Positions 1 to 12,229 of a stretch of 16,590 nt of DNA are shown here, in pieces. The stretch is from Geminicoccaceae bacterium (GTDB lineage Bacteria; Pseudomonadota; Alphaproteobacteria; Geminicoccales; Geminicoccaceae), in contig JAPJRA010000019.1 of assembly GCA_030824835.1 (NCBI GenBank), positions 1 to 16,590 of the forward strand, read 5' to 3'. The notes under the pieces are model-generated. The model worked only from the letters and a program-made list of their open reading frames with translations, made no database searches and had not been told where the DNA came from. The position numbers and the translations under genes are program-made. Position 1 is the stretch's first letter. Each line of letters starts with the position of its first letter.

Positions 1-55
1 CGACAGAGCCAAAGTTGGACGCCGATCGGGGGTCAAAGTTCCAAGCCGTTTGACA
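1..55. mobile_element. Possible terminus of an IS21-like element lying left of the window
   Basis: Two imperfect direct repeats are visible here, each containing CAAAGTT followed by a short ...GCCG... block, and the stretch ends in TTTGACA at 49-55. Read on the minus strand it begins TGTCAAACGGC. From memory, IS21-family ends begin TGT and carry subterminal repeats of this GGGTCAAA...CGCCG type. No transposase is visible because the body would lie outside the window. This call rests on repeat style only. Confidence 0.33.
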
Positions 56-137
56 TATTGCCCACGCCAAGCACGATTGCAGTGTGACCGGTGCCATTTC
101 ACTCCCCCATTGGGGCCTACCGATGGAGTTGACCCTG

Positions 138-432
138 TTAGGCGGGACACGCGGCAGGCTGTGACATGACCCGGATGTACTTCCCGAGGGGAGCGGTATC
201 CGAGCCGACCGTGCGGATGGACGTCGTTGTAGTCGTCCATCCAGGAGGGGATTGCGGCGAGGGCGGTTTTGGCGTTTGGGATCGGGTTCACGCGAACATG
301 GTCTCGCTTGAACGTCTTCACGAAGGCCTCGGCGATGCCGTTGCTCTGCGGGCTATCGACCAGCGTGAAGCAGGGATCCAGGTTGAGCGCGAGAGCCATG
401 TCGATGGTCTTTGCGGCTGCGTAGATCGACCC
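138..432 (-). pseudogene. IS3-family OrfB transposase, C-terminal remnant, frameshifted
   Basis: The minus strand encodes the end of an IS3-type integrase core. It contains the block 'SPQSNGIAEAFVKTFKRD', which carries the last acidic residue of the DDE triad, then a 'YNDVHPHGRLGYRSP' tail. The two upstream aspartates are missing because the 5' part of the gene is deleted. Near the end the reading frame breaks after '...RSPRE': one extra A around 183-186 shifts the frame, and the normal 'YIRVMSQPAACPA' ending with TAA at 138-140 is recovered only in the next frame. The gene therefore carries a 5' deletion and a frameshift and is not functional. Confidence 0.75.
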
Positions 433-637
433 GGACGGCTTCCTTGCCACCTTCGCTCATCAGCTGCCTCCATCGGAACACGAGACTGGGAGAGAGCCAG
501 TGGCGACGGGCAACATAGCTGATCGACATGCCGGGCTGCATCGTTTCGGCCACCACGGCGAGCTTTTGCTCCGTCGTGAAGCGCCGGCGATGGGCAACAT
601 CGGTGATCATTTCCACCTTCGAGAAGGTCTCAGACAT
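433..637 (-). pseudogene. IS3-family OrfA transposase, N-terminal remnant
   Basis: The first 68 or so codons after the ATG at 637 encode a typical OrfA helix-turn-helix: 'RRRFTTEQKLAVVAET', then 'ISYVARRHWLSPSLVFRW', then 'LMSEGGKEAV'. In intact relatives a leucine-zipper region and a programmed frameshift into OrfB follow. Here the sequence jumps at about 430-436 into the end of OrfB in a different frame. The remnant could still give a short DNA-binding peptide, but there is no sign that it is kept for function. Confidence 0.78.
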
Positions 638-756
638 AGGTCTATCCCTTGGTCTGTGCCTAGGGCCTCCCTCTAACGCCGATGTCCGGTCGAAACGGGG
701 GGCACTTCAGCACACCAGCTTCGTGTAGATTCCTCAAGGCGAACGCAAGATAGGAA

Positions 757-785
757 TTGATACGGAGAGGCCGATATGCTACTAT
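757..785 (+). promoter_or_regulatory. Sigma70-like promoter of alpA
   Basis: TTGATA at 757-762 and TACTAT at 780-785 are separated by exactly 17 bp, an almost consensus sigma70 pair. Transcription would begin near 792. A GAGGAGA ribosome binding site (802-808) and the alpA ATG (815) follow. This is the clearest housekeeping promoter in the window and lies just right of the IS debris. Confidence 0.65.
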
Positions 786-814
786 AGGTTGCTGAGTTGG
801 TGAGGAGATATCAC

Positions 815-1078
815 ATGACGAGTGTTCGTGACACACAGCTAGGTACTTTAGCACTTGGCGCCCCGAGCCCTTCCGATCGCATGGCACTAGGACTGCGCCC
901 CGAAGCCGAGACGGCCGCCCAATTGGGCATCAAGGTGCAGACGCTTCGAAAATGGGCCGTCCATCGGAAGGGGCCGCCCCGGGTCAAGGTTGGAAAGCGC
1001 GTCTTCTACCGGCCGGAGGCCGTCCAGGCGTGGCTGGCGGCGCAGGAGCAAGATCCAGCCGCAGCACGAGTGTCGTGA
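815..1078 (+). CDS. AlpA-like helix-turn-helix regulator / excisionase
   Basis: An 87-residue protein with a compact winged HTH of the MerR/excisionase (HTH_17, AlpA) type at about residues 27-74. It shows 'TAAQLGIKVQTLRKW' (first helices and recognition helix), a 'GPPRVKVGKRVFYRPEAVQAWL' wing and the final helix. ATG 815 was chosen because GAGGAGA at 802-808 is ideally placed; the upstream TTG and GTG in frame would swallow this site. In P4-like prophages and satellites AlpA activates int or excision, and that role is inferred here. The stop codon overlaps the GTG start of the next gene by 4 nt, indicating translational coupling. The N-terminal 25 residues are not conserved-looking. Confidence 0.85.
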   Translation: MTSVRDTQLGTLALGAPSPSDRMALGLRPEAETAAQLGIKVQTLRKWAVHRKGPPRVKVGKRVFYRPEAVQAWLAAQEQDPAAARVS

Positions 1079-1494
1079 CCCAGGTATTCGAGCTGGTGCT
1101 CACGCCGACACCTAACCGCCCCGGCCACTACGCGGCCCACCTGGGCGAACGCTGCATTCTGCGGGCATCCAGGCAACCGCTGTTCGATGGTGCCCGGGTG
1201 CTGGCGGGCGAGGGCGTGCCGCCGGACGCCCTCCTGAGCACCAGGCACGCCGGCAGCTCGATCCTGGCCACCCGCTCCACGGTGGGCGAGGCGTCCAGGT
1301 GGACGATCGAGGAAAGCGATGCGCGCGGTCTGCGGCGGCGGCCGTGGCGACCGCATCCTGATGCCGCCCGGACTGGGGGCGGGGCGGCCAAAAACGAGAG
1401 AGACGACCCGTCCGGCACCAATGAGCCCGCCCGCGATCAGCGCGTGCTGGCGGCCATCTCCGCCCCATCCCACGGCGCGGCTCCCGCCGCGTAA
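1075..1494 (+). CDS. Small conserved-type protein coupled to alpA, function unknown
   Basis: A GTG start at 1075 overlaps the alpA stop in a GTGA arrangement. The product is 139 residues. Its first ~95 residues ('HYAAHLGERCILRASRQPLFDGARVLAGEGVPPD', then a 'TRHAG' segment and 'RRRPWRPHP') resemble, as far as I can recall, short uncharacterised proteins encoded between alpA and repA in sphingomonad islands. The last ~40 residues are low-complexity, rich in Ala, Arg and Pro, and may be unconserved. No catalytic motif, signal peptide or membrane segment is visible. Its place between a regulator and a replication helicase suggests a role in element control or replication, but nothing in the sequence proves this. 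A shorter start is possible. Confidence 0.68.
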   Translation: MTQVFELVLTPTPNRPGHYAAHLGERCILRASRQPLFDGARVLAGEGVPPDALLSTRHAGSSILATRSTVGEASRWTIEESDARGLRRRPWRPHPDAARTGGGAAKNERDDPSGTNEPARDQRVLAAISAPSHGAAPAA

Positions 1495-1528
1495 CCAGCG
1501 TCAACGATCAAACTGAGGATCGGAACGA

Positions 1529-1545
1529 CACTCGCGTCGCGAGTG
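1529..1545. promoter_or_regulatory. Palindromic operator site 1 (repA promoter region)
   Basis: CACTCGC-GTC-GCGAGTG is a perfect 7-bp inverted repeat with a 3-bp spacer, centred 63 bp upstream of the repA start. CATAAT at 1567-1572 would be a reasonable -10, placing the palindrome over or just upstream of the -35 position. The same motif recurs at 5139 and 5190. Confidence 0.6.
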
Positions 1546-1599
1546 CCGGGCCGTTGCGGATGTCCACATAATAGGAATAAATACAAGGAGATCAATGAG

Positions 1600-3486
1600 A
1601 TGCACACGGAGCCTAATGCAAACGATCAAGCGCCGGGAGCCATTCCGCGTGGCGCTCTGGGCATGATCGAGACCGCAATTCATTCGTTCGATCGCGACCA
1701 TGCGGCCGAGGGTGCGCTCTGCTACTTCATGGAGCACTCTGCCGCGGTCGGAGCCGGAGCGCGCGCAGTGCTGGACGCTCATGGGGGGCCGGAAGAGTTC
1801 TCGCGCAATGATCCACGCCTGGCGCCAAACTCAGGGCGCTATGCATTCGCGCAAATGTTGGTTTTTCCCTACCCTGAGGATGACGGTCTCGATCTGCCTT
1901 GCGTGATGGCTGCCGCCAAGCTCGAGCTATGCTTGCAGTCTAACGGCAGTGGGAAATCCAAGCGTTGCGGTAGAGATGAGCCCGGACCTAGCGCGATGGA
2001 CGAGCGCAAAGCTGCCTCCGTCCTGGCCGCGCTCAACGAGCATGCGCAATTCCTGCGTTCCCTCGGAGTGCTGGCGCATGTTGAGGATGAAGGCTGGCGC
2101 GGGGGAACCGGCCAGAGCGATCCCGAGCGCGAGTTCTCTCGCCAGCTCACCCTGTATGCCTTCGCTCCCTTGTTTCACAAGTACGGCCGAGCAACCTGGG
2201 CGGCCTTTGAGGCGCTGCAAGAGCTTGTCAAATCGGCCGCCGTGCCTGACGGAGATGCTGCCATAGGCGGCCCGTTCGCCTTGCCGTCACTCGCCGGTGC
2301 GCTGCTGGACGCCATGGGCGGACGGGGCGGCACGCTCCCGGCCTGCCTTGCCAAGTCGCCCGACGAACTGGAGGCGCTGGCGGAGGAGTGGCGAGATGCC
2401 GGCTACGATATTGCGATGTTCGAAGCGACGGGCGATCGATGGTTGAGCCGCGTGCCGGAAGATATCGAGCCCCTGGTAGACGGTGCCATTTTTCGCGGCA
2501 AGCTGCATGCTTTCCTCGGCGGCGCCTCTACCGGCAAGAGCACTGCCCTACATGAACTGGCCGTTAAGCTCAGCATAGGCTTGTCGGCGGCCGCACCGCC
2601 CATGGTGTGGTGCGGCCTGACAATACGGCCGAACGACAAGCCGCGACGTGTCCATTTCTTTTCGGGTGAGGACACGCGCGACATTATCGGCAGGCGAGCG
2701 CGGGCTTTCGCTGGCGCCGGCGCAACATCAACTGCCGTATCGTTCCCGGAAGGGGGTGCGGATGGGCTCAGGCGGTATCTGCAGGGCCTCAAAGGCAAGA
2801 GGCGCGGCGATCCTGGCGTGCCTGACCTCATCGTGATCGACCCGGCCCTGACGTTCCTCGATGGATGCGAGAGCGATGCCGGCGACGTGGGCGCCGCGCT
2901 TGGCGAACTCGTGGAGATTGCCGCCGGAACCGAAGCCGCCGTCGTCGTGGCTCACCACCTGCAAAAGAACGCCAATCCCCGCTCCATGCGGGATCTGCGC
3001 GCGATGGTACGTGGCTCCCAGGTATGGATCGATCGGCCGCGTATCGTACTTGGCTTTCTGAGAACCCGAGACGCGACGCAACTCGGTGTGGTCAAGAGCA
3101 ACATCCCGGGCGTCGAGGAGTTCGTAGTGCTGGCGACGCTCACCCGCGATCCGACAACGCTCATGCATATGCCTGCGGAGCCCAGGTCCGCCAAGGGAAC
3201 TGCATCGACCATCCCGGCTCGGGCCGTCGCGCCCAGCGCGGGCGATCTGGACGAGCCGATCATGGCCGCTCTGCGGCGGCTGATCGGGGAGGGCAAGCGC
3301 GTGACGCTCACTGGCAAGAATGATGGGTTCCGCATTCACGCGCCGGCCGAGGTGGCAGGTGTTGCGCGCGACACGGTGCTGGCGTGCCTGCGGGGTCTTA
3401 TCGAGGTTGGCCGAATTGCGCGAGCCGAAGACGGTGCGCTGCGTCCAGCCGAGGGCCACGACGGGACGGCGCTGGCCGCCGAGTGA
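1600..3486 (+). CDS. repA: RepA-family AAA_25 replicative helicase / ATPase
   Basis: A 628-residue protein. ATG 1600 is preferred over the longer frame because AAGGAG sits at 1585-1590. Residues ~300-500 form a RecA-like AAA_25 core related to plasmid RSF1010 RepA: Walker A 'GGASTGKST' (307-315), 'HFFSGED' after it, Walker B 'LIVIDP' with Asp414, the 'VVAHHLQKN' sensor region (His452-His453), and 'RGSQ' (471-474). The N-terminal ~290 residues have no recognised domain, though a replication-associated role is plausible. The last ~70 residues look like a winged helix ('HAPAEVAGVARDTVLACLRGLIEVGRI'). Family members are hexameric ATP-driven helicases or replication regulators. No primase or RSF1010-type RepC initiator is seen nearby. 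Confidence 0.85.
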   Translation: MHTEPNANDQAPGAIPRGALGMIETAIHSFDRDHAAEGALCYFMEHSAAVGAGARAVLDAHGGPEEFSRNDPRLAPNSGRYAFAQMLVFPYPEDDGLDLPCVMAAAKLELCLQSNGSGKSKRCGRDEPGPSAMDERKAASVLAALNEHAQFLRSLGVLAHVEDEGWRGGTGQSDPEREFSRQLTLYAFAPLFHKYGRATWAAFEALQELVKSAAVPDGDAAIGGPFALPSLAGALLDAMGGRGGTLPACLAKSPDELEALAEEWRDAGYDIAMFEATGDRWLSRVPEDIEPLVDGAIFRGKLHAFLGGASTGKSTALHELAVKLSIGLSAAAPPMVWCGLTIRPNDKPRRVHFFSGEDTRDIIGRRARAFAGAGATSTAVSFPEGGADGLRRYLQGLKGKRRGDPGVPDLIVIDPALTFLDGCESDAGDVGAALGELVEIAAGTEAAVVVAHHLQKNANPRSMRDLRAMVRGSQVWIDRPRIVLGFLRTRDATQLGVVKSNIPGVEEFVVLATLTRDPTTLMHMPAEPRSAKGTASTIPARAVAPSAGDLDEPIMAALRRLIGEGKRVTLTGKNDGFRIHAPAEVAGVARDTVLACLRGLIEVGRIARAEDGALRPAEGHDGTALAAE

Positions 3487-3802
3487 CGAATGCGTCTCGC
3501 CGGCACGGCGCTCCGCCCGGCGCGACCGAACGCCGAGCACGTCCCCACCTTTGAATGACGTCCAGCGGGCTCGGTGGTTACGCCAGCTCCGCGACTTGCC
3601 GCAACGTAGTAATCGAGCACCCAGGCGGACCCGCAGAATTGCTGGTTGCGGCAGTCGCGGATGGCGCCGCGACTATACCGCGACATGAAGCATCCGGCAC
3701 CGCGACTGGCATGCTTGCCGAAATTACTATTAAGTCTTGAATTTAGGACGAATATCGTGTACTGGATTGTAAGTATTGTTCAAGTCACAGCGTCGCGGAA
3801 CG
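3487..3802. other. Intergenic stretch with no supported gene
   Basis: The short open frames here on both strands lack ribosome binding sites, are low-complexity and match no family I know. The composition changes from GC-rich to clearly AT-rich at about 3716-3785, which could hold a promoter for the downstream structured transcript, but no convincing -35/-10 pair was found. Confidence 0.5.
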
Positions 3803-3907
3803 CCTCCCTATAGGAGAGGGGTAGAAGCTACCGCTTCCGCGCCTTCATCGGCGCACAGCAGTAGCATCTCCCCTCCCTGAATAGGGCCGACCGGGCAGGG
3901 ATAGGGG
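3803..3907 (+). other. Cluster of four consecutive hairpins, candidate structured leader or small RNA
   Basis: Four stem-loops follow one another in 105 nt. They are 3803-3819 (CCTCCC/GGAGAGG with one bulge, loop TATA), 3820-3832 (GGTAG-AAG-CTACC), 3839-3854 (GCGCC/GGCGC, 6-nt loop) and 3870-3907 (CCCCTCCCTG against CAGGG-AT-AGGGG). An alternative pairing GAAGC-TACC-GCTTC overlaps the second, so two folds could compete. A purine-rich AT stretch and a small gene follow. The fourth hairpin might simply be a terminator for repA, although no T-run follows it. Confidence 0.4.
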
Positions 3908-3994
3908 GAAGGCCTTAGAAAAGAGAAGAAAGATTGAGAGTTAGGGATGATCCGCACCGTCCCGCTGGACGACCACCATCAAGGAGCCATGCTG

Positions 3995-4204
3995 ATGAGC
4001 TACGGAATGATCGCCAACGCCGAGGGGCTGTTCCCCGGCTTCCGCTTCGTGGTCTGGCCGCTGGCCGGGCAAGATTGGCTGGACGCGATGACCGCACACG
4101 AGACCGCGCATCCCGACGACTTCGGGCCGTGCCTGGTGCTGGAACGCGAGCCGAAGTTGCGCGCCTCGCGCCGCCCGCATTCGGCGCGCCGCAAGAGCCG
4201 CTGA
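3995..4204 (+). CDS. Small hypothetical protein between repA and terS-like gene
   Basis: A 69-residue product starting 'MSYGMIANAEGLFPGFRFVV'. ATG 3995 is chosen because AAGGAG at 3981-3986 lies 8 bp upstream; ATG 3989 is too close to that site, and ATG 3947 would extend the protein by 16 residues without a clear binding site. The first ~50 residues are well balanced and rich in Trp/Phe with acidic residues ('WPLAGQDWLDAMTAHETAHPDDFGPCLVLE'), while the tail is strongly basic ('RRPHSARRKSR'). I do not recognise the family. It has no signal or membrane segment. It may be co-transcribed with the terS-like gene 230 bp downstream. In that gap I see only a 44-codon frame (4339-4473) overlapping the terS start, too weak to call. 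Confidence 0.55.
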   Translation: MSYGMIANAEGLFPGFRFVVWPLAGQDWLDAMTAHETAHPDDFGPCLVLEREPKLRASRRPHSARRKSR

Positions 4205-4435
4205 TCAGGGACGTCGGCCGCACCTCCACGTGTGCGGCCGGCAGGCGAACCATCTGACCGCGGCGCTGGCCGCAAGGGAAGGGGCCGCCGACCGGTCTCT
4301 TCGATCCTCCCCGAAAGACAGGGCCGCCGAGGGCGCGGATGCCGCCCGAGCTTCCCGGCCCCGATCATCTCCAGCCCCACCTGGACGCAATCCCGCTCGA
4401 TCGGGTGCGCGGCTCCACCCAACAGGAGAACCACG

Positions 4436-4942
4436 ATGGCCATGCAGAAAGGTTTGATCCGCCGCGCCCGTGACGGGCGCATCGCCGGCACCGAAGGTCT
4501 GTCGGACATGCAGGCCGCTTTCGTCGAGGCCTACATCGCGAATGGCGGCCAGCAGACCGAGGCCGCACGCGCGGCCGGCTACAGCCAGCCCGACCTGCGG
4601 GCCTACGAACTGATGCGCCATGAGCGCGTCCAGGCGGCGATATCGGCAGCGCTGCGGCCGAGGTTGGGGAAGATCGGGCACTTGGCCGCGACGCTGATCG
4701 ACCGCGAGCTACAAACGGCGTTGGACAACCCCGACGACAAAGCGGCTCAGATACCCATCGGCACCTTGCAAAAGCTGCTGGCGAGCGTCGCTGACAAGCT
4801 GCTGCCGCCCGCGGCAACTGAGAATGAAGGCCGTGATCCCACGCCGCGGCCCTCGATCGCTGACATGGAAGCCGAGCTTGCCGAGTTGAAGCGCCTTCAG
4901 TCAGATGCGGCGTTGATCTTTGATGCTGATCCAGCGGATTGA
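4436..4942 (+). CDS. Terminase small subunit-like DNA-binding protein
   Basis: A 168-residue protein. ATG 4436 follows AGGAGA (4424-4429). Residues 22-70 match the phage small-terminase HTH pattern: 'LSDMQAAFVEAYIANGGQQTE', then 'AARAAGYSQ' and 'LMRHERVQAAI'. A helical middle follows (~75-120, 'LIDRELQTALDNPDDKAAQIPIGTLQKLLASV'), and then an acidic probable coiled coil (~138-157, 'MEAELAELKRLQ') suited to oligomerisation. In phages TerS recognises the packaging site and hands DNA to TerL; in staphylococcal satellites a satellite-encoded TerS redirects helper packaging. No TerL, portal or capsid gene accompanies it here, which fits satellite use, but a recruited DNA-binding role is possible. 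Confidence 0.75.
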   Translation: MAMQKGLIRRARDGRIAGTEGLSDMQAAFVEAYIANGGQQTEAARAAGYSQPDLRAYELMRHERVQAAISAALRPRLGKIGHLAATLIDRELQTALDNPDDKAAQIPIGTLQKLLASVADKLLPPAATENEGRDPTPRPSIADMEAELAELKRLQSDAALIFDADPAD

Positions 4943-5138
4943 GCCTCTGGCGCCGATTGCCTGGACGGGGCACGCGCGCGGCGTGACCTTGCGGGGCGGG
5001 AGGGGCCAGAAAACGCGGCGGCGCTGCTGCGGCCATCACTCTGGTCCGACTGGTCGATCGGCCTTCTGACGGCCCCCGCCCCCGCTGGACGGGTAGGCGC
5101 GAAACGCCCGGCGGTGTCCCGGCGGCCCATCGCGATAG

Positions 5139-5155
5139 TACTCGCTACACGAGTG
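5139..5155. promoter_or_regulatory. Palindromic operator site 2
   Basis: TACTCGC-TAC-ACGAGTG has a 5-bp ACTCG/CGAGT core identical to site 1 and site 3 and the same spacing. It lies 197 bp downstream of the terS-like stop in a non-coding region. TACTAT can be read leftward on the minus strand across its left edge, but without a properly spaced -35. Confidence 0.55.
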
Positions 5156-5189
5156 GGGCCACGCAATGGTATAGGCCGGAGGGGCCGGA

Positions 5190-5206
5190 TACTCGCTGGG
5201 CGAGTG
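5190..5206. promoter_or_regulatory. Palindromic operator site 3
   Basis: TACTCGC-TGG-GCGAGTG has 6-bp perfect arms (ACTCGC/GCGAGT). Its centre is 51 bp from the centre of site 2, close to five helical turns, so proteins bound to both would face the same side of the DNA. The right flank (GG then CC) also resembles that of site 2. Confidence 0.55.
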
Positions 5207-5374
5207 GTCCTAGTCAGACCGCGCGACCGCCGATAGTCCCGAAATTTGACCAACTGGCGGTGCATCGTCGAGCGCCAGGACCGGTCGGACCAATCCGCCT
5301 GGATAGGTCGCAGCAACTGACGCGCCCGGCTCCGGACCCTTTACCCCTCTGAGACGGCCACCGACGCGTTTGGT

Positions 5375-5448
5375 AGGATTGGGCGGATCGGTGTCGTTCT
5401 CCGCAGGGTTGGGTAGTTTAAGCGTACAGATCACAAGGGTTGGATGGG
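5375..5448 (+). repeat. Three iteron-like direct repeats, candidate replication origin
   Basis: AGGATTGGGCGG (5375), AGGGTTGGGTAG (5405) and AGGGTTGGATGG (5436) are spaced 30 and 31 bp apart, about three helical turns, with consensus AGGRTTGGRYRG. They are followed from about 5450 by a clearly AT-richer stretch, and preceded 170 bp upstream by the paired palindromes. Iterons beside an AT-rich region are typical of replication origins. No protein is shown to bind here. Confidence 0.42.
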
Positions 5449-5595
5449 TGTATGTGCCATTTTGGTAACACTTGTCAGTAATCGGTAAAGCGTTGTGTGA
5501 CATGCAATTGTTGAGGAAATTGTACCGGAAGGCGACTTTGAAGATGTAACGGGTGCGTGTACCTGCGCCATATCGAAATAAGGCGCAGAGGGTCT

Positions 5596-5733
5596 GTGAT
5601 ACACACTGTAGATGCCACCGAAATTATCATTGCTATCATCTCAACTTGGCCGACGACCTGCAAGTTCGAGGTCTCAACGCACCTCGTTGTGCTCGCCGCG
5701 ATCGCCGCGTGGTTGTGGGGCGGGCGAAAGTGA
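5596..5733 (+). CDS. Possible 45-residue membrane protein
   Basis: A GTG-initiated frame with two hydrophobic stretches, 'TEIIIAIISTW' (about 8-18) and 'THLVVLAAIAAWLWGG' (about 28-43), and a short basic end before TGA at 5731-5733. The product looks like a tail-anchored or small inner-membrane peptide. AGAGGG precedes the GTG by only 3 nt, so the start is uncertain; a longer start at GTG 5557 is also open. Residue order is sensible for a membrane peptide, but no homology can be claimed and chance is not excluded. Confidence 0.25.
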   Translation: MIHTVDATEIIIAIISTWPTTCKFEVSTHLVVLAAIAAWLWGGRK

Positions 5734-6072
5734 TTGGGTCGGGCGGTCCGCCGGTCAAGAGGGTTGCGCCGCTCTCTTGTGCTGCGCCAGCCGGCAGCTA
5801 GCGATCGCAAGAACTGCGTGGCGGGGCGAAGCGTTCAATCCAGCGCCTAGCGGCCCTGCGCGACCGCCGCGAGGCGCACCCACGCACCTTGCGGCGGTCG
5901 TTCCCGCCAAGCGCTTGAAGGCGAGCATCATTCCAACTCGCGCTCAGGTCATGATGCATTTCATCGCCTGGCCGGCATCGATGCAGCGGCGGGGTCATCA
6001 ATCAGCTGGCATGCGATCGCCGGCACCGGCGGCATGGAGGGTTGACGCCACGTCGAACTCGGCTCAATCATG
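5734..6072. other. Non-coding stretch without a supported gene
   Basis: Apart from the long inverted repeat at 5861-5900, I see nothing recognisable. A plus-strand frame spans most of it (5612-6073) but the translation is Arg/Ser/Ala/Pro-rich and featureless, as expected of out-of-frame GC-rich DNA, and the minus-strand frames are no better. Confidence 0.5.
5861..5900. repeat. Long inverted repeat (14-bp arms)
   Basis: CGACCGCCGCGAGG (5861-5874) and CCTTGCGGCGGTCG (5887-5900) are complementary at 13 of 14 positions, with a 12-nt loop. As RNA it would be a very stable hairpin. No T-run follows on either side, so it may be a terminator, a REP-like element or a protein site; no gene ends directly before it. 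Confidence 0.5.
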
Positions 6073-6124
6073 AGTGCTTGATCAAAGCACTTCTTAGTGC
6101 TGCAATATCTGCCTTTAAGATATC
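6073..6124. promoter_or_regulatory. Inverted repeats upstream of the secreted small protein gene
   Basis: AGTGCTT (6073-6079) and AAGCACT (6085-6091) form a perfect 7-bp inverted repeat around GATCA. A third half-site AGTGCT lies at 6096-6101. A second inverted repeat, TATCT...AGATA, spans about 6107-6123. All sit in AT-rich DNA directly before the gene at 6145, so they are candidate operators. No good -35/-10 pair was found. Confidence 0.4.
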
Positions 6125-6144
6125 ACTTACAGTGAGAAATATGC

Positions 6145-6423
6145 ATGCGGTACGCAATATTAGCCCTAGGATTGATAGCATATATTGAGGTGTCGCCGGT
6201 CGGTGTTCAAAGTAGTTTAAACGGATACTCCTGTACAGAAGATTGCTCCGGTCATGAGGTCGGCTATAATTGGGCCGAACAAAACGATATAACCGATGAA
6301 AGTGATTGCAGCGGATACTCAAATTCTTTCATTGAAGGATGTTATGCTTACGTCGAAGAGGAAAGTGGCTCCTCTGGGTCTGACGACGGCTCTGATGATG
6401 AGAGCGAGGACGGTGAGGAGTAG
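6145..6423 (+). CDS. Small exported Cys-containing protein with acidic tail, function unknown
   Basis: A 92-residue product. Residues 1-24 look like an export signal (Arg2, then the hydrophobic 'YAILALGLIAYIEV'), with cleavage probably near Gly/Ser 20-24. The mature core has four cysteines in the pattern 'CTEDCSGHEVGYNWAEQN', then 'DESDCSGYSNSFIEGC'. This resembles, from memory, small uncharacterised alphaproteobacterial proteins with a CSGHxxGYxWAxxN motif. The cysteines could form two disulfides in the periplasm. The last ~20 residues are almost only Ser, Gly, Asp and Glu and may bind divalent cations. ATG 6145 has a weak GTGAGA at 6132-6137. The AT-rich 5' half contrasts with the neighbours, suggesting separate acquisition. 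Confidence 0.7.
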   Translation: MRYAILALGLIAYIEVSPVGVQSSLNGYSCTEDCSGHEVGYNWAEQNDITDESDCSGYSNSFIEGCYAYVEEESGSSGSDDGSDDESEDGEE

Positions 6424-6640
6424 CGGGACGCCCTCGTTGCAGGCTGCCCGGACGCCGCTGGCCGCCGATCTCGAGCTGGCGATACCGTCCCGGGCAGTCT
6501 GGTCCGTCCGCCGTCGGCATGTGGCCAGCGCGGCAAATTGGAGCGCGCTATCCCGGGCGGGCGCTCTGGCGCTGGCCCCAAGGCGGATGGGATGGTGCCA
6601 GGAGTAGCGCGGGCCACTCGCGGCCCCACCGATCGGCGGG

Positions 6641-7498
6641 CTACGGTCGTGCGCGGCCAGTGCCTGCGGCAGCTTCATGCGATCGACGCCGCTTCTTTGC
6701 CAGCATCTGCCTCATCCGTACCTCGGCACTGACCTTCAGCGCAGATGGGTCGGCCCCCACTGCCTTCAACGCATCTTCGATGGTCACAGCAGTGGCCACG
6801 GCCGACGGCGCCTTGACGCCTTCGGGTGGCTTCGACGCAGGCACGGGCGCGCCGAGGCAGGCGTCAACATCCTCTGGCCGGAAGCGAGAATGGCCGCCGG
6901 GAAGTCTGTACGCCCGCAGCGCACCGGCTGCCACCCAGCGCTCGATAGTCCGGGGTGTCACGCCGAGGCGCTTCGCGACTTCGGCTTTGGTCATGAGCAT
7001 ACGCACGGTCCCTTGGTCGATTGGTGCTGGTATCGCTGCAACGTGTTGTGGCTGTGGTTGCTCGATGGGTGGAGCAGCGCTTGGAGGGGGCACTCCCTGC
7101 GGTTTCGTCGGCGGGCGCCAATAGGTCGGCTCGCCGAGCCGATGGAGACCCTTGCGCACTCGCCGCAGGAACAACTTGTGCCGGAGCCAGTCGTTGGCGT
7201 TTTTTCGCTCTGCCGGCGTGGCCTTTGCCCATATCGCCAACGCTTCCTCGGCCGTGATGATCCGCGGCTCGTATGGCGTGTCGCTCTTACATTGGCCCCG
7301 CCTTCGGCCCGGAAGCAACTTCACCTTGGCAGGCGTTGGCTTGGGCTTGGCAAGGTAGGCGTCAACATCCTCGGGTCGGAATACCCAGCGCCCGGCCGGC
7401 GTGCGGTATGCCGGTATTTTGCCGGCATCCACCCACCGCAGGAGCTTGTGAATTGTGACGCCTAAGCGCTTGGCAGCCTGGCTACGGGCAATCAGCAT
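6641..7498 (-). CDS. Protein with two excisionase/MerR-type HTH domains
   Basis: A 285-residue product from ATG 7498, preceded by AGGTGG; GTG 7504 and 7507 are alternatives. Domain 1 (1-50) reads 'MLIARSQAAKRLGVTIHKLL' then 'RPEDVDAYLA'. Domain 2 (167-216) reads 'MLMTKAEVAKRLGVTPRTIE' then 'RPEDVDACLG'. Both are HTH_17-type DNA-binding folds with the same 'RTPAGRWVFRPEDVDA'-like wing, and both are preceded by Val-Arg-Met-Leu. Between them lies a basic helical linker (~85-125, 'NDWLRHKLFLRRVRKGLHRLG') and a Pro-rich hinge. The C-terminus is basic. Single-domain relatives act as excisionases or regulators; two domains could bridge two sites or bend DNA. It lies in the same element as alpA and int, suggesting control of excision, but this is inferred. 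Confidence 0.82.
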   Translation of the reverse strand: MLIARSQAAKRLGVTIHKLLRWVDAGKIPAYRTPAGRWVFRPEDVDAYLAKPKPTPAKVKLLPGRRRGQCKSDTPYEPRIITAEEALAIWAKATPAERKNANDWLRHKLFLRRVRKGLHRLGEPTYWRPPTKPQGVPPPSAAPPIEQPQPQHVAAIPAPIDQGTVRMLMTKAEVAKRLGVTPRTIERWVAAGALRAYRLPGGHSRFRPEDVDACLGAPVPASKPPEGVKAPSAVATAVTIEDALKAVGADPSALKVSAEVRMRQMLAKKRRRSHEAAAGTGRARP

Positions 7499-7514
7499 TC
7501 GCACCACCTATTGC

Positions 7515-7526
7515 GACGATGTCGTC
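7515..7526. promoter_or_regulatory. Palindrome in front of the tandem-HTH gene
   Basis: GACGATGTCGTC has perfect 5-bp arms and sits 17-28 bp upstream of the ATG at 7498 (minus strand). Its position between promoter and start would suit autorepression. One short palindrome can occur by chance. Confidence 0.3.
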
Positions 7527-7662
7527 AATGTCGGGCGATTTATTCCAACACAGGATATCGCACAACAATCAAAACTGCCCGTGTGGTTTGTTTGTCGGGA
7601 GTGTTGTGTTTACCGTTACGACAATCAATACAAGGCTATGTTAGGGTAGTGGAAAATAATAT

Positions 7663-7690
7663 TTGACGCCAGTTAGAATTGCGTTAATTT
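7663..7690 (+). promoter_or_regulatory. Sigma70-like promoter of the gene at 7764
   Basis: TTGACG (7663-7668) and TAATTT (7685-7690) are separated by 16 bp inside an AT-rich divergent intergenic region. Transcription would start near 7697, just ahead of the hairpin at 7705-7737 and the gene at 7764. Confidence 0.45.
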
Positions 7691-7704
7691 TGCTGATCCT
7701 AAGC

Positions 7705-7737
7705 GCCCGCCGGTGTGCGGCTAACACTCCGGCGGGC
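7705..7737 (+). other. Strong hairpin in the 5' leader of the gene at 7764
   Basis: GCCCGCCGG pairs perfectly with CCGGCGGGC, and an inner GTGT/ACAC can extend it. No T-run follows, so it is not a classic terminator. It ends 14 nt before the AGAGGA ribosome binding site (7751-7756), consistent with a leader structure affecting stability or translation. Confidence 0.45.
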
Positions 7738-7763
7738 TGGCCCACACAGCAGAGGATGCTGCT

Positions 7764-8165
7764 ATGCATGCCACGATCGAGAATACAGTGCGTACGGGCG
7801 CAGAGCGAGTGTTGCGCGACCTCGCGGCCAACATTCGGGTGCAGGATGCCCTAGAGGCCGCGGCAGCGGGTGGCGATGCCACCGCGGCCCGGAAGGAGCG
7901 CAAGCTAGCCGCCGCACGCCACGCGATCGAGGCGCGCCTGCTGGCCAAGGCGCCCAGCTCGCCCAGCACCGCAGTAGCGGTGGCCATCGTCAACGCGGCG
8001 CAAATGGATCGCTACCTCACGAGCGACGACTGCGAAGCGACCGCCGAACCCAAAGGTGTCGCCCCGGCGCTCTGGGCGCTCATCCGCAGCGCCGTCGAGC
8101 CCGTCATTCGAGCCGGTTCGCCTGAACTGGAGCAGATTGTGGATTGGTATTTGCCCGCGGTGTGA
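7764..8165 (+). CDS. Helical hypothetical protein next to int
   Basis: A 133-residue product with AGAGGA (7751-7756) placed 7 bp before the ATG. The sequence predicts almost wholly helical: 'IENTVRTGAERVLRDLAANI', an Ala-rich basic middle ('ARKERKLAAARHAIEARLL'), and an end with 'ALWALIRSAVEPVI' and 'ELEQIVDWYLP'. There is no signal peptide, membrane span or enzyme motif. I do not recognise it. It converges with int, and the two share the hairpin at 8192-8211 as a two-way terminator. As the gene nearest the integrase it may serve the element, but no function should be assigned. Confidence 0.65.
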   Translation: MHATIENTVRTGAERVLRDLAANIRVQDALEAAAAGGDATAARKERKLAAARHAIEARLLAKAPSSPSTAVAVAIVNAAQMDRYLTSDDCEATAEPKGVAPALWALIRSAVEPVIRAGSPELEQIVDWYLPAV

Positions 8166-8191
8166 CCGCTCAAGCACCCGATAACGCGAAA

Positions 8192-8211
8192 GGGGCGCCG
8201 CAAGGCGCCCC
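8192..8211 (-). terminator. Terminator between converging genes, stronger for int
   Basis: GGGGCGCC-GCAA-GGCGCCCC is a perfect 8-bp stem. Read on the minus strand it is followed by TTT, and it lies 30 bp beyond the int stop codon, fitting an intrinsic terminator for int. On the plus strand no T-run follows, but it may still stop transcripts of the gene ending at 8165. Confidence 0.7.
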
Positions 8212-8241
8212 AATGCATTGCAGACAACGGCGGCCGGTGCC

Positions 8242-9498
8242 CTACGCCGTCTCGCGCCGGATCGGCACCACCTTGGATGTCTCGCCCTGGACGAGGGCCA
8301 TGACATGCTCCGCCCAGCGGTCCATGGCTTGGCGCTTCTCCACGGCATAGGTCGCCCGGTTGTAGACGCCCGCGACGCCCGCCTTGTGGCCGCTGATGTG
8401 GTTGACGACGGCCTCTATCACGTGCGGCTGGACGCCGAGCTCCGCCATGCCGGTGACGGCCGTGCGCCGAAGATCGTGCAGCACCCAGGGCCGTGGCCTG
8501 TCGTCCGGACGGGGCGCCTCCGCCGCTTCCAGCGGTCGGCCAATCCGGTCCGCGGCCTTCTGACGTGCGATGCGACTGTCCAGGCGACCCTTGCAGCGCG
8601 ACCATGCAGCAAAAGGCCCATCGCCTTCGCCGAACAGTAAATCTCGTCCCTCGCGCCGCTCCACAGCTGCAAGGATCGCCAGCGCCGCATCGGATAGCGG
8701 GACATCATGCGGCCGACCATTCTTCGTTCTGGCGCCCGGCAGCGACCAGAGAGCGCGCTCAAAGTTTAGCTCCGACCACGCCATGCCAGCCACTTCCTCG
8801 CGGCGCTGGCCAGTCAGCATCAGAAGGCGCACGACGCGGCCATGGTTGTTCTCGGCGCACGCCCACCAGATCGCGCGCAACTCGTCCGCCGTAAGCACGC
8901 GCTCGCGGGGCTTCTCCTCGCGCTTGTTCGTCCCGGTGACGGGGTTGATTTCCAGCCAGCCCTCGCTGATCGACCATCGGAACAGGGCCGATAGCTGGGC
9001 TCGCGCCCTGTTGGCCGCCACCGGCCCGCTCACCTGGGCGATCTCCGAAAGACGCGCCGCGACCTGACCACGCGTGATCCCGGCCAGAGGCAGGGCATGT
9101 AGCGTCGCCCAGTGCGTTTCGAGCGCCCGCCGCGTCTCGACCTGGGTGCGAACCTTCTGCTCGGGCACGCGGTCGGCAACGTAGCGAGCGACGGCCCGGC
9201 CAAGGGTCACAGCCGTTCGATCCACGGCCTTGGCGGCCAGCGGATCACTGCCCTTGATCACGTCACCCTTACGAGCGCGGGCGATCTCGCGTGCCGCGGT
9301 GAGCGACAGGGTAGGGAAGTCGCCGATGGTCATACGCCGCTCGCGACCCTGGGCGGTGTAGCGTAGCACGAAGGCGCGATGGCCGCCGGCCGTGATCCGC
9401 ACGCCGAGCCCGCGCTCCTGCGTGTCCCACTCGACCCGGTTCCCGCTAGCTGGCGGGTCCATGGCGCGGATGAACTGCGGCGACAGATTGCGTGGCAT
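8242..9498 (-). CDS. int: P4-type tyrosine site-specific integrase
   Basis: A 418-residue recombinase. The N-terminus (~5-85) is the DUF4102-type arm-binding domain ('RGLGVRITAGGHRAFVLRY', 'MTIGDFPTLSLTAAREIA'), followed by a SAM-like core-binding domain (~95-195) and the catalytic domain. Catalytic residues are Arg232 ('TGQRREEV'), Lys259 ('TKNGRPH'), His341 and Arg344 ('HDLRRT'), His367/His371 ('NHISGHKAG') and nucleophile Tyr379 ('VYNR'). All are present, so the enzyme is probably active. ATG 9498 is preferred because the family's 'MPRNLS...' start aligns there; ATG 9531 would add 11 residues encoded by repeat DNA. The gene reads inward from the tRNA-Pro fragment at 9665-9713, its likely target. 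Confidence 0.92.
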   Translation of the reverse strand: MPRNLSPQFIRAMDPPASGNRVEWDTQERGLGVRITAGGHRAFVLRYTAQGRERRMTIGDFPTLSLTAAREIARARKGDVIKGSDPLAAKAVDRTAVTLGRAVARYVADRVPEQKVRTQVETRRALETHWATLHALPLAGITRGQVAARLSEIAQVSGPVAANRARAQLSALFRWSISEGWLEINPVTGTNKREEKPRERVLTADELRAIWWACAENNHGRVVRLLMLTGQRREEVAGMAWSELNFERALWSLPGARTKNGRPHDVPLSDAALAILAAVERREGRDLLFGEGDGPFAAWSRCKGRLDSRIARQKAADRIGRPLEAAEAPRPDDRPRPWVLHDLRRTAVTGMAELGVQPHVIEAVVNHISGHKAGVAGVYNRATYAVEKRQAMDRWAEHVMALVQGETSKVVPIRRETA

Positions 9499-9509
9499 CG
9501 ATCGATCTC

Positions 9510-9641
9510 GTGTCCGTCCTGTGTCCGTCATTGACGGACACCGATGGGTCGTGTCCGTACATCATCGGCAACCATTAGAGAGAGGGGCTTGATAAAAAGT
9601 CAACAAGAACAGGTGTTTCGTCAATCGCTGGCAACGGACAC
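9510..9641. repeat. Five copies of GTGTCCGT between int and att, likely arm-type sites
   Basis: GTGTCCGT occurs at 9510-9517, 9521-9528 and 9551-9558, and its complement ACGGACAC at 9534-9541 and 9634-9641. The second and fourth copies form a perfect 9-bp inverted repeat around ATT (9521-9541). The cluster lies in front of int, with the last copy 23 bp from the att core. Arm sites for integrase or binding sites for an excisionase are the natural reading; int autoregulation is also possible. Confidence 0.65.
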
Positions 9642-9664
9642 GAATGCGCGCAAGCGGTCGCTCG

Positions 9665-9713
9665 CAGTCTGGGGGACTGGGGGTCCCGGGTTCAAATCCC
9701 GGCGCTCCGACCA
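9665..9713 (+). other. Attachment site: displaced 3' half of a tRNA-Pro(GGG) gene
   Basis: The sequence contains an anticodon arm (stem CAGT/ACTG, loop CTGGGGG, anticodon GGG at 9671-9673), a variable loop, a T-arm with CCGGG-TTCAAAT-CCCGG (9686-9702), acceptor strand CGCTCCG (9703-9709), discriminator A and encoded CCA (9711-9713). G72 and A73 fit bacterial tRNA-Pro, which has the rare C1-G72 pair. No D-arm or 5' acceptor strand (CGGAGCG) precedes it, so it cannot make a tRNA. Identity seems to begin at the anticodon stem, the usual crossover zone for tyrosine integrases. Confidence 0.85.
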
Positions 9714-9752
9714 ATCAAATCAGCGGGTTATCTCGCTTTCGTCCTATCCGCC

Positions 9753-9778
9753 GCTTCCCAGATTTCGAATTGGGAAGC
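9753..9778 (+). terminator. Hairpin downstream of the tRNA-Pro fragment
   Basis: GCTTCCCA and TGGGAAGC are perfect 8-bp arms around a 10-nt loop that can pair further (ATT/AAT). It lies 40 bp after the CCA end and probably was the transcription terminator of the tRNA-Pro gene before the element inserted. No T-run follows, so this is moderate evidence only. Confidence 0.4.
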
Positions 9779-9838
9779 AGCGTGGACGATTCTTGCTCAA
9801 GACAGGGCAGCGTCAGGCCTAAGCCGACAGCGCGGCCA

Positions 9839-10114
9839 CTACCGCCCTACGCCCGGCATCCGCACCGCGTCCCCGATCCGGTTGCCGCAGCGCTGGCAGC
9901 ACAGCCTCGCCTCGACCTCGACTAGGCGCTGATGCTCGGATTCACCGTTGATGGGCTGCGACAGCCAGATCGAGGTGCTGTGACGGCAGGCACCGCAGAT
10001 AGGCATCAGCTCGGATGACGGTGTAGATTGCCGGGCCGCAGGACAAACTGTGATCCGAGCACATGCGTAGTTGGCCCACTCGTCTCGTGAGGCAATCCGG
10101 CGCAGCGCCACCAT
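9839..10114 (-). CDS. Small protein with cysteine pairs (zinc-ribbon-like), function unknown
   Basis: A 91-residue product from ATG 10114, with AGAGG about 12 nt upstream; ATG 10195 would extend it by 27 residues towards the divergent RTX gene. Two CxxC-type pairs are present, 'PICGACRHST' (about 39-42) and 'LCCQRCGNRIG' (about 71-75), a spacing that could bind zinc. The middle ('WLSQPINGESEHQRLVEVEARL') looks like beta strands between the ribbons. It appears to be a chromosomal gene just outside the element. I do not know the family; the residue pattern, not homology, is the reason for calling it coding. Confidence 0.5.
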   Translation of the reverse strand: MVALRRIASRDEWANYACARITVCPAARQSTPSSELMPICGACRHSTSIWLSQPINGESEHQRLVEVEARLCCQRCGNRIGDAVRMPGVGR

Positions 10115-10198
10115 CCGATGGCATCGCCTCTGGTCGGGGCGTGCGTCGCGGCCTAGAGCAGACCCGAAGGCAGTGATATTCGCCTCAGGGGGCATACG

Positions 10199-12229
10199 AT
10201 GGCATATTTGACCGTGACCACTCAAGCTGATGTCGTCGATCCGGGTGATGGCCAGCTCAGCCTGCGTGAGGCGGTGGCGCAGGCCAACGCGACCGCCAGC
10301 GCCGATTATATCAAGTTCGTGCTGACGCTGGAGGGGCAGACGCTGGTGCTCACGGGAGGTGAACTGGTGGTCTCCCAGGACCTCACGATCGACGGCGACC
10401 GCAACCACGACGGCAATACCGTGACCCTCGACGGGAACGCTAGCGGGCGAATCATCAGCATTGTCGGCAGCAGTACGGATGTGAATCTGCGAAACCTCAC
10501 TCTTGCTAACGGATACTCCGGCGTTGCGGCGGCCAATGGTGGGGCAATTCTGCTTGACGGAGGCGCCCTGACGACGGTCGGCACCACAATTCGTGACTCA
10601 GGTGCTGGCTATGGCAGCGAAGGCGGCGCGATCTATGCAGCCAAGGGTAGCAAGATTAGTATAATCGGCAGTTCGATTACCGGAAATAGTGCGGATCACG
10701 GAGGCGGCGCCATCAGCGCAGCGCAAAATGTCAGTCTGGATATCCGAGATAGCGATATTTCTCATAATAGGTCTTTCTATAGCGGAAGTCCTGGGTTGCA
10801 AATGGACGCTGGAAGTCTATTAAATTTAGAGAACAGCAATGTATCAGTAAATATATCTACCTATTACTGCCATGGAGGAGGAGTATATTTGAATGGAGCC
10901 GTGGCACAGATCAGCAGAAGTACTATTTCTTTTAATTACACGTCAGGAGGTGGTGGCATAGTTGTATCTAATGGCCATATAAGTATATCTAATAGTACTA
11001 TTGCCAATAACAACACTGGTGATCCAGATAGCGATACACATGGCGGTGGACTGATATTATATAGAAGTACAACGAACATTGTAAATTCTACTATCGCATT
11101 TAATGGGGCATTCGCTCAATATGCTAAGTCATCTGGCGGCGGCATATTTTTAGATCCGAGCAGTCAAATGGCGATCTCTAATTCGATTGTTATTGGCAAC
11201 ATTGCTAGGATTTACCCTGTTGGCTCTGGAACAGATCCTGATATCGAAGGGACTATTACCTTTAGCAACGGCCACAATATTTTCGGAAGCGACGTGAAGG
11301 GCAATGCTCCGGGCGACCGCGAGAAGGTAGCGACCAATTTAGTCTTGGCAGGTCCGCTCACGTCGACCGGTATCGTGCCGCTCAAGAACAACGTCACCAA
11401 CCCCGCCCTCTCCGCCGCCGACCCGATCTCAGCCAGCAGCTTCGGCCAGCTTGGCACCACCAAGCGCCCGCTGCCCGCCGGCAGCTTGCCCGACATCGGA
11501 TCGATAGAGATCGAGCAGCGGCTTTCCACGAGCCCCACCGTCAACAACGACGTGCTGGCTGGCAGCAGCGCCGCCAACAACCTGTCGGCTCTGGCCGGCA
11601 ACGATCTGCTCAAGGGGCAGGGCGGCAACGACACCCTGAACGGCAACGACGGCAGTGACGTGTTGGACGGCGGCCTTGGCAACGACAAGCTCAACGGTGG
11701 CGCCGGCATGGACATCGCGACCTTCGCCGGCAGCACGGCGGTCGTGGTCGACCTCACGGCCAAACCGGCCACCGCCAGGCGCGGCGGCGAGATCGACCAG
11801 CTTTCCTCCATCGAAGGTATCATCGGCTCGGACAAGGCCGACACGTTCAAGGGTGACGGCCAGAACAACGAGTTCCAGAGCGGCCTCGGCAAGGATGTCG
11901 CCACCGGCGGCGCCGGCCGCGACCTCTACGCGTTCCGCACTGTCCAGGAGAGCCCGCCGGGAAGCGGCCGCGACGTCATCAAGGACTTCGTACCCGGCCA
12001 GGACGTGATCGACGTCGCCAACATCGACGCCGACGAGACCATCCCCGGCCAGCAGAGCTTCCGCTGGGTCGGCAAGGCCACGCTGACCGGGGCGGCGCAG
12101 CTCGGCTACTACGTCGCAGGCGGCAACACGATCGTTCGTGCCAGCACCACCGACGCCGACGCCGCGGCCGAAGTGGAAATCCAGCTCAGCGGCGTGAAGG
12201 TACTGACGCCGGCTGACTTCCGATTCTGA
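10199..12229 (+). CDS. Secreted right-handed beta-helix protein with RTX repeats (type I secretion substrate)
   Basis: A 676-residue product; CAGGGGG (10186-10192) precedes the ATG. There is no N-terminal signal peptide. Residues ~4-30 form a CSLREA-like opening ('VVDPGDGQLSLREAVAQAN'). Residues ~50-370 are parallel beta-helix turns full of 'GGGAI', 'ISNSTI' and 'NSTIAFN' units. Residues ~450-580 carry RTX-type calcium-binding nonapeptides ('GGNDTLNGNDGSDVLDGG', 'GGAGRDLYAF'). Residues ~583-676 resemble the serralysin-type C-terminal region ending 'LTPADFRF', the usual uncleaved ABC-exporter signal. No exporter genes are nearby. The segment ~10640-11290 is much richer in A and T than the flanks, suggesting exchange or import of the beta-helix middle. 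Adhesion or polysaccharide binding or cleavage is possible; no catalytic site is identified. Confidence 0.88.
   Translation: MAYLTVTTQADVVDPGDGQLSLREAVAQANATASADYIKFVLTLEGQTLVLTGGELVVSQDLTIDGDRNHDGNTVTLDGNASGRIISIVGSSTDVNLRNLTLANGYSGVAAANGGAILLDGGALTTVGTTIRDSGAGYGSEGGAIYAAKGSKISIIGSSITGNSADHGGGAISAAQNVSLDIRDSDISHNRSFYSGSPGLQMDAGSLLNLENSNVSVNISTYYCHGGGVYLNGAVAQISRSTISFNYTSGGGGIVVSNGHISISNSTIANNNTGDPDSDTHGGGLILYRSTTNIVNSTIAFNGAFAQYAKSSGGGIFLDPSSQMAISNSIVIGNIARIYPVGSGTDPDIEGTITFSNGHNIFGSDVKGNAPGDREKVATNLVLAGPLTSTGIVPLKNNVTNPALSAADPISASSFGQLGTTKRPLPAGSLPDIGSIEIEQRLSTSPTVNNDVLAGSSAANNLSALAGNDLLKGQGGNDTLNGNDGSDVLDGGLGNDKLNGGAGMDIATFAGSTAVVVDLTAKPATARRGGEIDQLSSIEGIIGSDKADTFKGDGQNNEFQSGLGKDVATGGAGRDLYAFRTVQESPPGSGRDVIKDFVPGQDVIDVANIDADETIPGQQSFRWVGKATLTGAAQLGYYVAGGNTIVRASTTDADAAAEVEIQLSGVKVLTPADFRF

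What the first reader, a model, noticed from the sequence alone, without database searches (positions are those of the whole stretch)
757..9713. Candidate phage satellite (PICI-like) in a sphingomonad: int, alpA, repA and terS without structural genes
The sequence shows a tRNA att site, an intact tyrosine integrase, an AlpA regulator, a replication helicase and a TerS-like protein, with no TerL, capsid, relaxase or secretion gene. Satellites that hijack helper packaging are built this way. I know of no well-described satellite family in sphingomonads with an AAA_25 RepA. A decayed prophage or simple island remains possible because the left end is outside the window.
Basis: partly seen in the sequence, partly recalled or inferred. 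Interest (0 to 1): 0.78.

Follow-up and report, generated by a model that had tools for sequence, protein, structure and literature searches.

The report
Phage satellite family in tRNA-Pro
A 9-kb stretch of bacterial DNA carries an integrase, a regulator, a replication ATPase and a lone phage DNA-packaging gene but no recognised virus-shell genes; a complete element of the same layout in Geminicoccus roseus also holds anti-phage defence genes, so both are likely phage satellites that would be packaged into the particles of other phages.

Summary

Main evidence: Geminicoccus roseus has a complete colinear 17.7-kb element between an intact tRNA-Pro(TGG) and a 51-bp repeat of its 3' end: alpA-repA-terS-[Dcm/Vsr/MzaBCDE-like defence genes]-int. 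Its terS is the only Terminase_2 match in that genome; Phage_portal, Phage_capsid and Terminase_6N searches of the genome were empty. A decayed prophage is therefore unlikely.

The sphingomonad host is not supported; the nearest named integrase is from Geminicoccus. Azospirillum and Nitrospirillum carry 16-17 kb capsid-forming-PICI-like elements in the same tRNA-Pro(GGG). Packaging by a helper phage is inferred, not shown. Verdict: new variant of a known kind (PICI-like satellite).

The parts
1..711 (-). decayed IS3-family insertion sequence (orfA 353-637, end of orfB 1-450); marks the left limit of what can be read of the element
   Evidence: the best plasmid IS3 copy matches 120-711 in two pieces and spans about 730 bp more in the record, so the window copy lacks its middle
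757..785 (+). promoter-like site (TTGATA-17-TACTAT, extended TG) just upstream of alpA
   Evidence: consensus match only; 5 found in the region, 1.6 expected
815..1078 (+). AlpA-like HTH_17 regulator/excisionase, 87 aa
   Evidence: phrog_66 1.5e-8; G. roseus copy 64% identical over 58 aa
1075..1494 (+). orf2, 139 aa, no Pfam or PHROG family, GTG start overlapping alpA; absent from G. roseus, where alpA abuts repA
   Evidence: GC3 0.83
1600..3486 (+). RepA: AAA_25 replication ATPase/helicase, 628 aa
   Evidence: 8 other relatives in the protein database; G. roseus relative 32% over 486 aa
3947..4204 (+). orf4, 85 aa, unknown, coding-like base use (GC3 0.87)
4436..4942 (+). TerS: small terminase subunit, 168 aa, without a terL neighbour
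   Evidence: relatives P0002 (71%) and P0003 (69%)
6145..6423 (+). orf6, 92 aa small acidic protein; 59.5% over 42 aa to a stretch of a Sphingomonadaceae genome; base use not clearly coding (GC3 0.45)
6641..7507 (-). protein with two HTH_17/MerR-like domains, 288 aa (possible second regulator or excisionase)
7764..8165 (+). orf8, 133 aa, unknown
   Evidence: GC3 0.77
8242..9498 (-). Int: tyrosine integrase, 418 aa, its start facing the att site
   Evidence: tree
9663..9713 (+). right att copy: 3' part of tRNA-Pro(GGG)

Best explanation
The stretch 712-9713 is likely most of an integrative element in tRNA-Pro(GGG); it carries alpA, repA, terS and int and no recognised virion or conjugation gene, and it likely works as a PICI-like phage satellite. 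The predicted cycle runs as follows. A helper phage turns on alpA; AlpA and Int excise the element at the tRNA-Pro repeat; RepA drives its replication; the element's own TerS replaces the helper's small terminase at a site on the element, so that the helper's TerL and heads package element DNA; in a new cell Int integrates it into tRNA-Pro and leaves the tRNA gene intact. The region between terS and int is a cargo slot, which in the G. roseus relative holds anti-phage defence genes. Shown here: the gene content, the small-terminase match of the TerS N-terminal domain, the right att fragment, and a complete colinear relative with both att copies. Inferred: every step of the cycle, including helper dependence.
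Against: No induction, excision, packaging or helper is known. The left end of the window's element is not seen. Window and G. roseus TerS align over only 32 residues of the DNA-binding region, and most of the window's TerS model beyond it has low confidence. Foldseek's E-values for the TerS matches are weak, 0.03 to 0.45. No primase domain was found in RepA, whereas described Gram-negative PICIs have Pri-Rep. The alpA-repA-terS set is rare: 2 other TerS and 8 other RepA (one search scored only the 7,993 candidates sharing most words). 4 of the 13 ORFs of 90 aa or more drawn for the G. roseus element were not family-scanned. No helper-type head genes of the three families searched lie in the G. 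roseus genome, so mobilisation would need an outside phage or a helper of other families.
Confidence: 0.66

Rival explanations
1. A decayed prophage that has lost its head, tail and lysis genes and kept int, a regulator, a replication gene and terS.
For: Window only: IS copy at the left end, a stretch without clear genes (about 4950-6140), left end unseen. Distantly related integrases at the same tRNA sit in elements with phage head genes.
Against: The same reduced set in the same order, with intact ORFs, recurs in G. roseus between 51-bp att copies, with RepA only about 32% identical, and pairs of its genes on two other contigs. Independent decay to the same set is unlikely.
Confidence: 0.13
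2. A phage-independent integrative island (defence or cargo island) whose TerS-like protein serves as a DNA-binding regulator; it moves by natural transformation, generalized transduction or a plasmid in trans.
For: No helper phage known; defence cargo in G. roseus; between window and G. roseus TerS only the DNA-binding region aligns.
Confidence: 0.17
3. An integrative mobilizable element moved by a conjugative plasmid or ICE through an unrecognised oriT.
For: Tyrosine integrase plus tRNA site is common to such elements (general knowledge); an oriT cannot be recognised with these tools.
Against: No relaxase or transfer family in Pfam, PHROGs or NCBIfam scans of nine window element proteins or in the Pfam scan of eight G. 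roseus element proteins; it does not explain terS.
Confidence: 0.04

Closest known systems
Gram-negative PICIs (EcCICFT073, PmCI172; PMC6092414, passages)
   Same: Integrase, AlpA-type regulator, replication module, in some a terS, no structural or lytic genes, accessory phage-resistance genes, site-specific att.
   Different: Here the replication protein is an AAA_25 RepA in which no primase domain was found; int lies at the far end from alpA and convergent (that it is usually next to the regulator in PICIs is recalled); the att site is the 3' end of tRNA-Pro; induction and packaging untested.
cfPICIs, as summarised in PMC10690885 (passages)
   Same: Head-gene-bearing elements with a distant integrase relative occupy the same tRNA-Pro(GGG) in Azospirillum lipoferum and Nitrospirillum amazonense.
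   Different: No portal, capsid, protease or TerL was found in the window element or the G. roseus element. In the integrase tree (midpoint root) the two Azospirillaceae integrases lie outside the window/G. roseus clade.
PICMIs of Vibrionaceae (PMC10803314, passages)
   Same: alpA, often one further gene, then the primase gene is the PICMI order; alpA-orf2-repA here is similar. Small, without capsid-remodelling genes.
   Different: PICMIs have a DUF3987/DUF5906 primase and the typical site is fis; no terS homolog was found in PICMI115.
SaPI-type PICIs with their own TerS (PMC6092414, passage)
   Same: A TerS of the satellite's own directs packaging from the satellite's pac site.
   Different: Stl-type repressor control and capsid-resizing genes (recalled features) were not noticed here, but not specifically searched; no sequence relation tested.

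Membership tests
PICI (criteria of PMC6092414) | integrase + replication module + master transcriptional regulator | tested here: met
   Int, AAA_25 RepA, HTH_17 AlpA-like; same set in G. roseus. That the HTH_17 protein is the master regulator is inferred
PICI (criteria of PMC6092414) | no phage structural or lytic genes | tested here: inconclusive
   none in scans of nine window element proteins or of eight G. roseus element proteins, but the window's left end is outside the contig and 4 of 13 ORFs drawn in the G. roseus element were not scanned
PICI (criteria of PMC6092414) | unique att site never occupied by prophages | tested here: inconclusive
   the same tRNA-Pro(GGG) holds head-gene-bearing elements in two Azospirillaceae; no tail tube, tape or baseplate family was found in them, but exclusivity was not surveyed
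PICI (criteria of PMC6092414) | size about 12-15 kb | tested here: inconclusive
   9.0 kb visible in the window, left end missing; 17.7 kb in G. roseus
PICI (criteria of PMC6092414) | genes belonging to PICI-exclusive ortholog groups | not tested
   no PICI ortholog library was available
PICI (criteria of PMC6092414) | helper-phage-dependent induction and packaging in phage-like particles | not testable with these tools
   needs induction and particle sequencing
cfPICI | own capsid, portal, protease, connector, TerS and TerL | tested here: not met
   window and G. roseus elements: only TerS found. Azospirillum (L008/L100) and Nitrospirillum (L012/L101) elements carry this set in large part
PICMI | DUF3987/DUF5906 primase and fis insertion site | tested here: not met
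   RepA passes the Pfam cut-off for AAA_25 only; the site is tRNA-Pro
Terminase small subunit (TerS) | HTH DNA-binding domain of the small-terminase fold | tested here: met
ICE / integrative mobilizable element | relaxase or conjugation genes | tested here: not met
   none (window, nine proteins) or 38 (G. roseus, eight proteins)
Complete prophage | terL, portal, capsid, tail, lysis module | tested here: not met
   none for the visible part; the window's left end is unseen

The most novel reading that the evidence does not exclude
A previously undescribed family of phage satellites in Alphaproteobacteria, built as tRNA-Pro - alpA - repA(AAA_25) - terS - cargo/defence - int - tRNA-Pro repeat. 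It hijacks packaging with its own small terminase, spreads Mza-type anti-phage defence, and shares its tRNA-Pro site with capsid-forming satellites of Azospirillaceae.
Probability: 0.55. Interest if true: 0.68.

Novelty: new variant of a known kind. Interest (0 to 1): 0.58.

Why it matters
If true, it extends TerS-carrying satellites to a branch of Alphaproteobacteria for which the paper searches made here turned up none (listings of an open-licence library, some capped). It also shows a satellite core with a different replication ATPase and a cargo slot used for defence, and makes tRNA-Pro a place where two satellite strategies (own TerS only, or own capsid) can be compared. The G. roseus element is complete and lies in a named species, so the idea is directly testable.

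Tried and rejected
Extension to the left: no genome is held for the window and the protein database lists it as a 16,590-b contig, so the intact tRNA-Pro could not be reached. RepA profile in the genome contigs of 84,980 species: 216 pattern matches, none a relative by tblastn; a RepA relative in G. roseus was found only by the later whole-genome search, so that emptiness is weak. In viral contigs: none of 29 and, for the G. roseus RepA, none of 2. TerS profile in viral contigs: none of 56. TerS in phage records and RepA in plasmid records: no match. Host identification: 0 of 31 genomes of the Geminicoccaceae order for each of two flank proteins (the tool warns that an empty answer without a known positive shows nothing), no plasmid match for the right flank, and in 20 of 385 class genomes only short matches, E 3e-5 or weaker, that look like chance. 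The host stays unidentified.

Other RepA matches: 1 of 25 genomes reached through integrase loci, E 9.7e-6 (27 loci given, L001 not held). 3 of 31 in the order, of which G. roseus at 5e-68 and the others at 5.7e-5 and 2.1e-4. 9 of 385 in the class at E <= 1e-10: one is G. roseus; 7 of the other 8 were fetched (G279 was not) and looked at as ORF lists. In 6 of these 7 no match to the G. roseus TerS or AlpA was found by tblastn (the window's AlpA, TerS and Int were not run against them). The seventh, G430, has a TerS-like ORF (36% over 121 aa to the G. roseus TerS, E 4.7e-5; no Pfam family) 5.6 kb from its RepA-like gene; it was not followed further. Terminase_2 rang in 2 of 12 genomes examined, G. 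roseus and G246, the latter on contigs other than its RepA match. Searches scored only 3-4 candidates per genome, so misses are weak.

Sphingomonadaceae: 5 of 298 genomes matched RepA remotely. 2 of the 5 were inspected; neither gave a tblastn match to the window or G. roseus AlpA or TerS or to the window Int, though G704 has an excisionase-like ORF by eye near its RepA.

A three-copy palindrome ACTCG-N5-CGAGT at 1530, 5140 and 5191 was noticed by eye. A pattern built from it after the fact gave 11 matches with up to 2 mismatches against 3.5 expected. The first palindrome test used wrong spacers; with the right one a family of three or more arose in 13 of 500 second-order Markov sequences, and no such family appeared in the G. 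roseus element. It carries no weight here.

Stella (L018) was dropped as a relative: weak AlpA and TerS matches only, and its ARAGORN tRNA-Pro call lies inside the integrase.

After the filing check I corrected: the count of small terminases among the structure rows, the G430 TerS-like ORF, the unscanned ORFs of the G. roseus element, and the status of one PICI row.
Full report
WHAT IS THERE. The window is a stand-alone contig of 16,590 bases; no genome is held for it, and its own proteins are listed with longest contig 16,590. From left to right: a decayed IS3-family copy (1-711), a promoter-like site at 757-785, alpA (815-1078), orf2, repA (1600-3486), orf4, terS (4436-4942), a stretch of about 1.2 kb without clear genes, orf6, a two-HTH_17 protein on the minus strand, orf8, int on the minus strand (8242-9498), and a 51-bp 3' fragment of tRNA-Pro(GGG) at 9663-9713. 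ARAGORN finds no whole tRNA in the window, as expected if the fragment is the right att copy and the intact gene lies to the left. Pfam, PHROGs and NCBIfam scans of nine element proteins show integrase, HTH_17, AAA_25 and Terminase_2 and no relaxase, secretion, portal, capsid or TerL family. Two HTH_17 proteins also match phrog_57, a PHROG named terminase small subunit, through the HTH alone; this is not read as evidence.

OTHER MEMBERS. The protein database (5.8 billion) gave 2 other TerS and 8 other RepA relatives at E <= 1e-3 (one search scored only the 7,993 candidates sharing most words). P0002 (TerS) and P0005 (RepA) both list a 15,023-b contig; P0003 (TerS) and P0014 (Int, 87%) both list 2 contigs with a longest of 87,594 b. 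That each pair shares a contig is inferred from the equal lengths. Their DNA could not be fetched. In an integrase tree of 32 rows (midpoint root, 13 of 29 inner branches starred) the window and P0014 are sisters (100/100), within a clade with G. roseus (100/99), with G. harenae next (98/96); what lies beside most other rows of that clade is unknown.

THE SAME SITE IN OTHER BACTERIA. The G. harenae integrase (51%) has a tRNA-Pro(GGG) fragment 92% identical over 51 bp just before it; the held contig ends shortly after the integrase. The Azospirillum lipoferum and Nitrospirillum amazonense integrases (38-39%) sit beside the same kind of fragment, and the intact tRNA-Pro(GGG) lies about 16.2 and 17.3 kb away (worked out by hand from the coordinates), with 54- and 52-bp repeats. 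Between them are a replication ATPase or DnaB, portal, protease-capsid, TerL and, in one or the other, connector, HNH, TerS, tail terminator or neck protein. No tail tube, tape-measure or baseplate family was found among the proteins scanned (5 of the 8, the 10 each, and the 23, with some scanned twice). These look like capsid-forming PICIs as described in PMC10690885 (passages). Their integrases lie outside the window/G. roseus clade, so the shared site is not evidence of close kinship.

HOW IT LIKELY WORKS. All steps here are inferred from anatomy and from described satellites (PMC6092414, PMC10803314 and PMC11389934, passages): alpA is switched on by a helper phage; AlpA and Int excise the element; RepA replicates it; its TerS redirects the helper's TerL to element DNA; particles made by the helper carry it to a new cell, where Int inserts it at tRNA-Pro. 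The slot between terS and int holds cargo; in the window this is small ORFs and a double-HTH protein, in G. roseus a defence system.

RIVALS. Decay of a prophage is made unlikely by recurrence of the same reduced set with intact att copies. A phage-independent island with a regulatory TerS-like protein remains possible. Conjugative mobilisation has no support beyond the impossibility of recognising an oriT.

HOST. Of the 120 integrase relatives listed, most unnamed, the nearest named is Geminicoccus roseus, then Geminicoccaceae and Microvirga among others. 5 of 298 Sphingomonadaceae genomes matched the RepA profile remotely, and the two inspected gave no AlpA, TerS or Int match, though one has an excisionase-like ORF by eye. 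One small ORF (orf6) does resemble a stretch of a Sphingomonadaceae genome (59.5% over 42 aa). Flank searches were uninformative. Host: an alphaproteobacterium, probably; not identified.

LITERATURE. Papers were sought; the listings (20 of 70; 15 of 724) were capped. Passages were read in PMC6092414, PMC10803314, PMC11389934 and PMC10690885, and the outline with abstract of PMC13376191. None of the passages seen describes a satellite in Geminicoccaceae; only open-licence PMC papers are held, so this is no proof of absence. The large satellite survey (10.1093/nar/gkad123) is not held and was not read.

Noticed in passing
L008:9708-21236 with L100 (reverse strand); L012:3365-14786 with L101 (reverse strand): Capsid-forming-PICI-like elements of about 16.2 kb (Azospirillum lipoferum) and 17.3 kb (Nitrospirillum amazonense) in tRNA-Pro(GGG), flanked by 54- and 52-bp repeats, with head and packaging genes but no tail tube, tape or baseplate family found.
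   Followed up: partly
window 1530, 5140, 5191: Three copies of ACTCG-N5-CGAGT, one just upstream of repA and two 3' of terS; possible operator, origin or packaging site, or chance (13 of 500 Markov sequences gave a family of three or more).
   Followed up: partly
L073:7862-17692: MzaBCDE-like defence genes with a cytosine methylase and Vsr carried as cargo of the G. roseus element.
   Followed up: yes
L089:3152-3622 and 9265-11664 (genome G430): A TerS-like ORF (36% over 121 aa to the G. roseus TerS, no Pfam family) 5.6 kb from an AAA_25-type RepA relative; could be a phage or another satellite.
   Followed up: no
L111/L112 and L113/L114 (two Sphingomonadaceae genomes): Remote RepA relatives close to a tRNA-Glu gene, followed by proteins that look like phage internal proteins (by eye, no family scan); possibly another class of integrated element.
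   Followed up: no
window 1-711: IS3-family copy missing about 730 bp of its middle relative to the best plasmid copy.
   Followed up: partly
window 6641-7507: A 288-aa protein with two HTH_17/MerR-like domains about 160 residues apart, a double excisionase-like protein.
   Followed up: no
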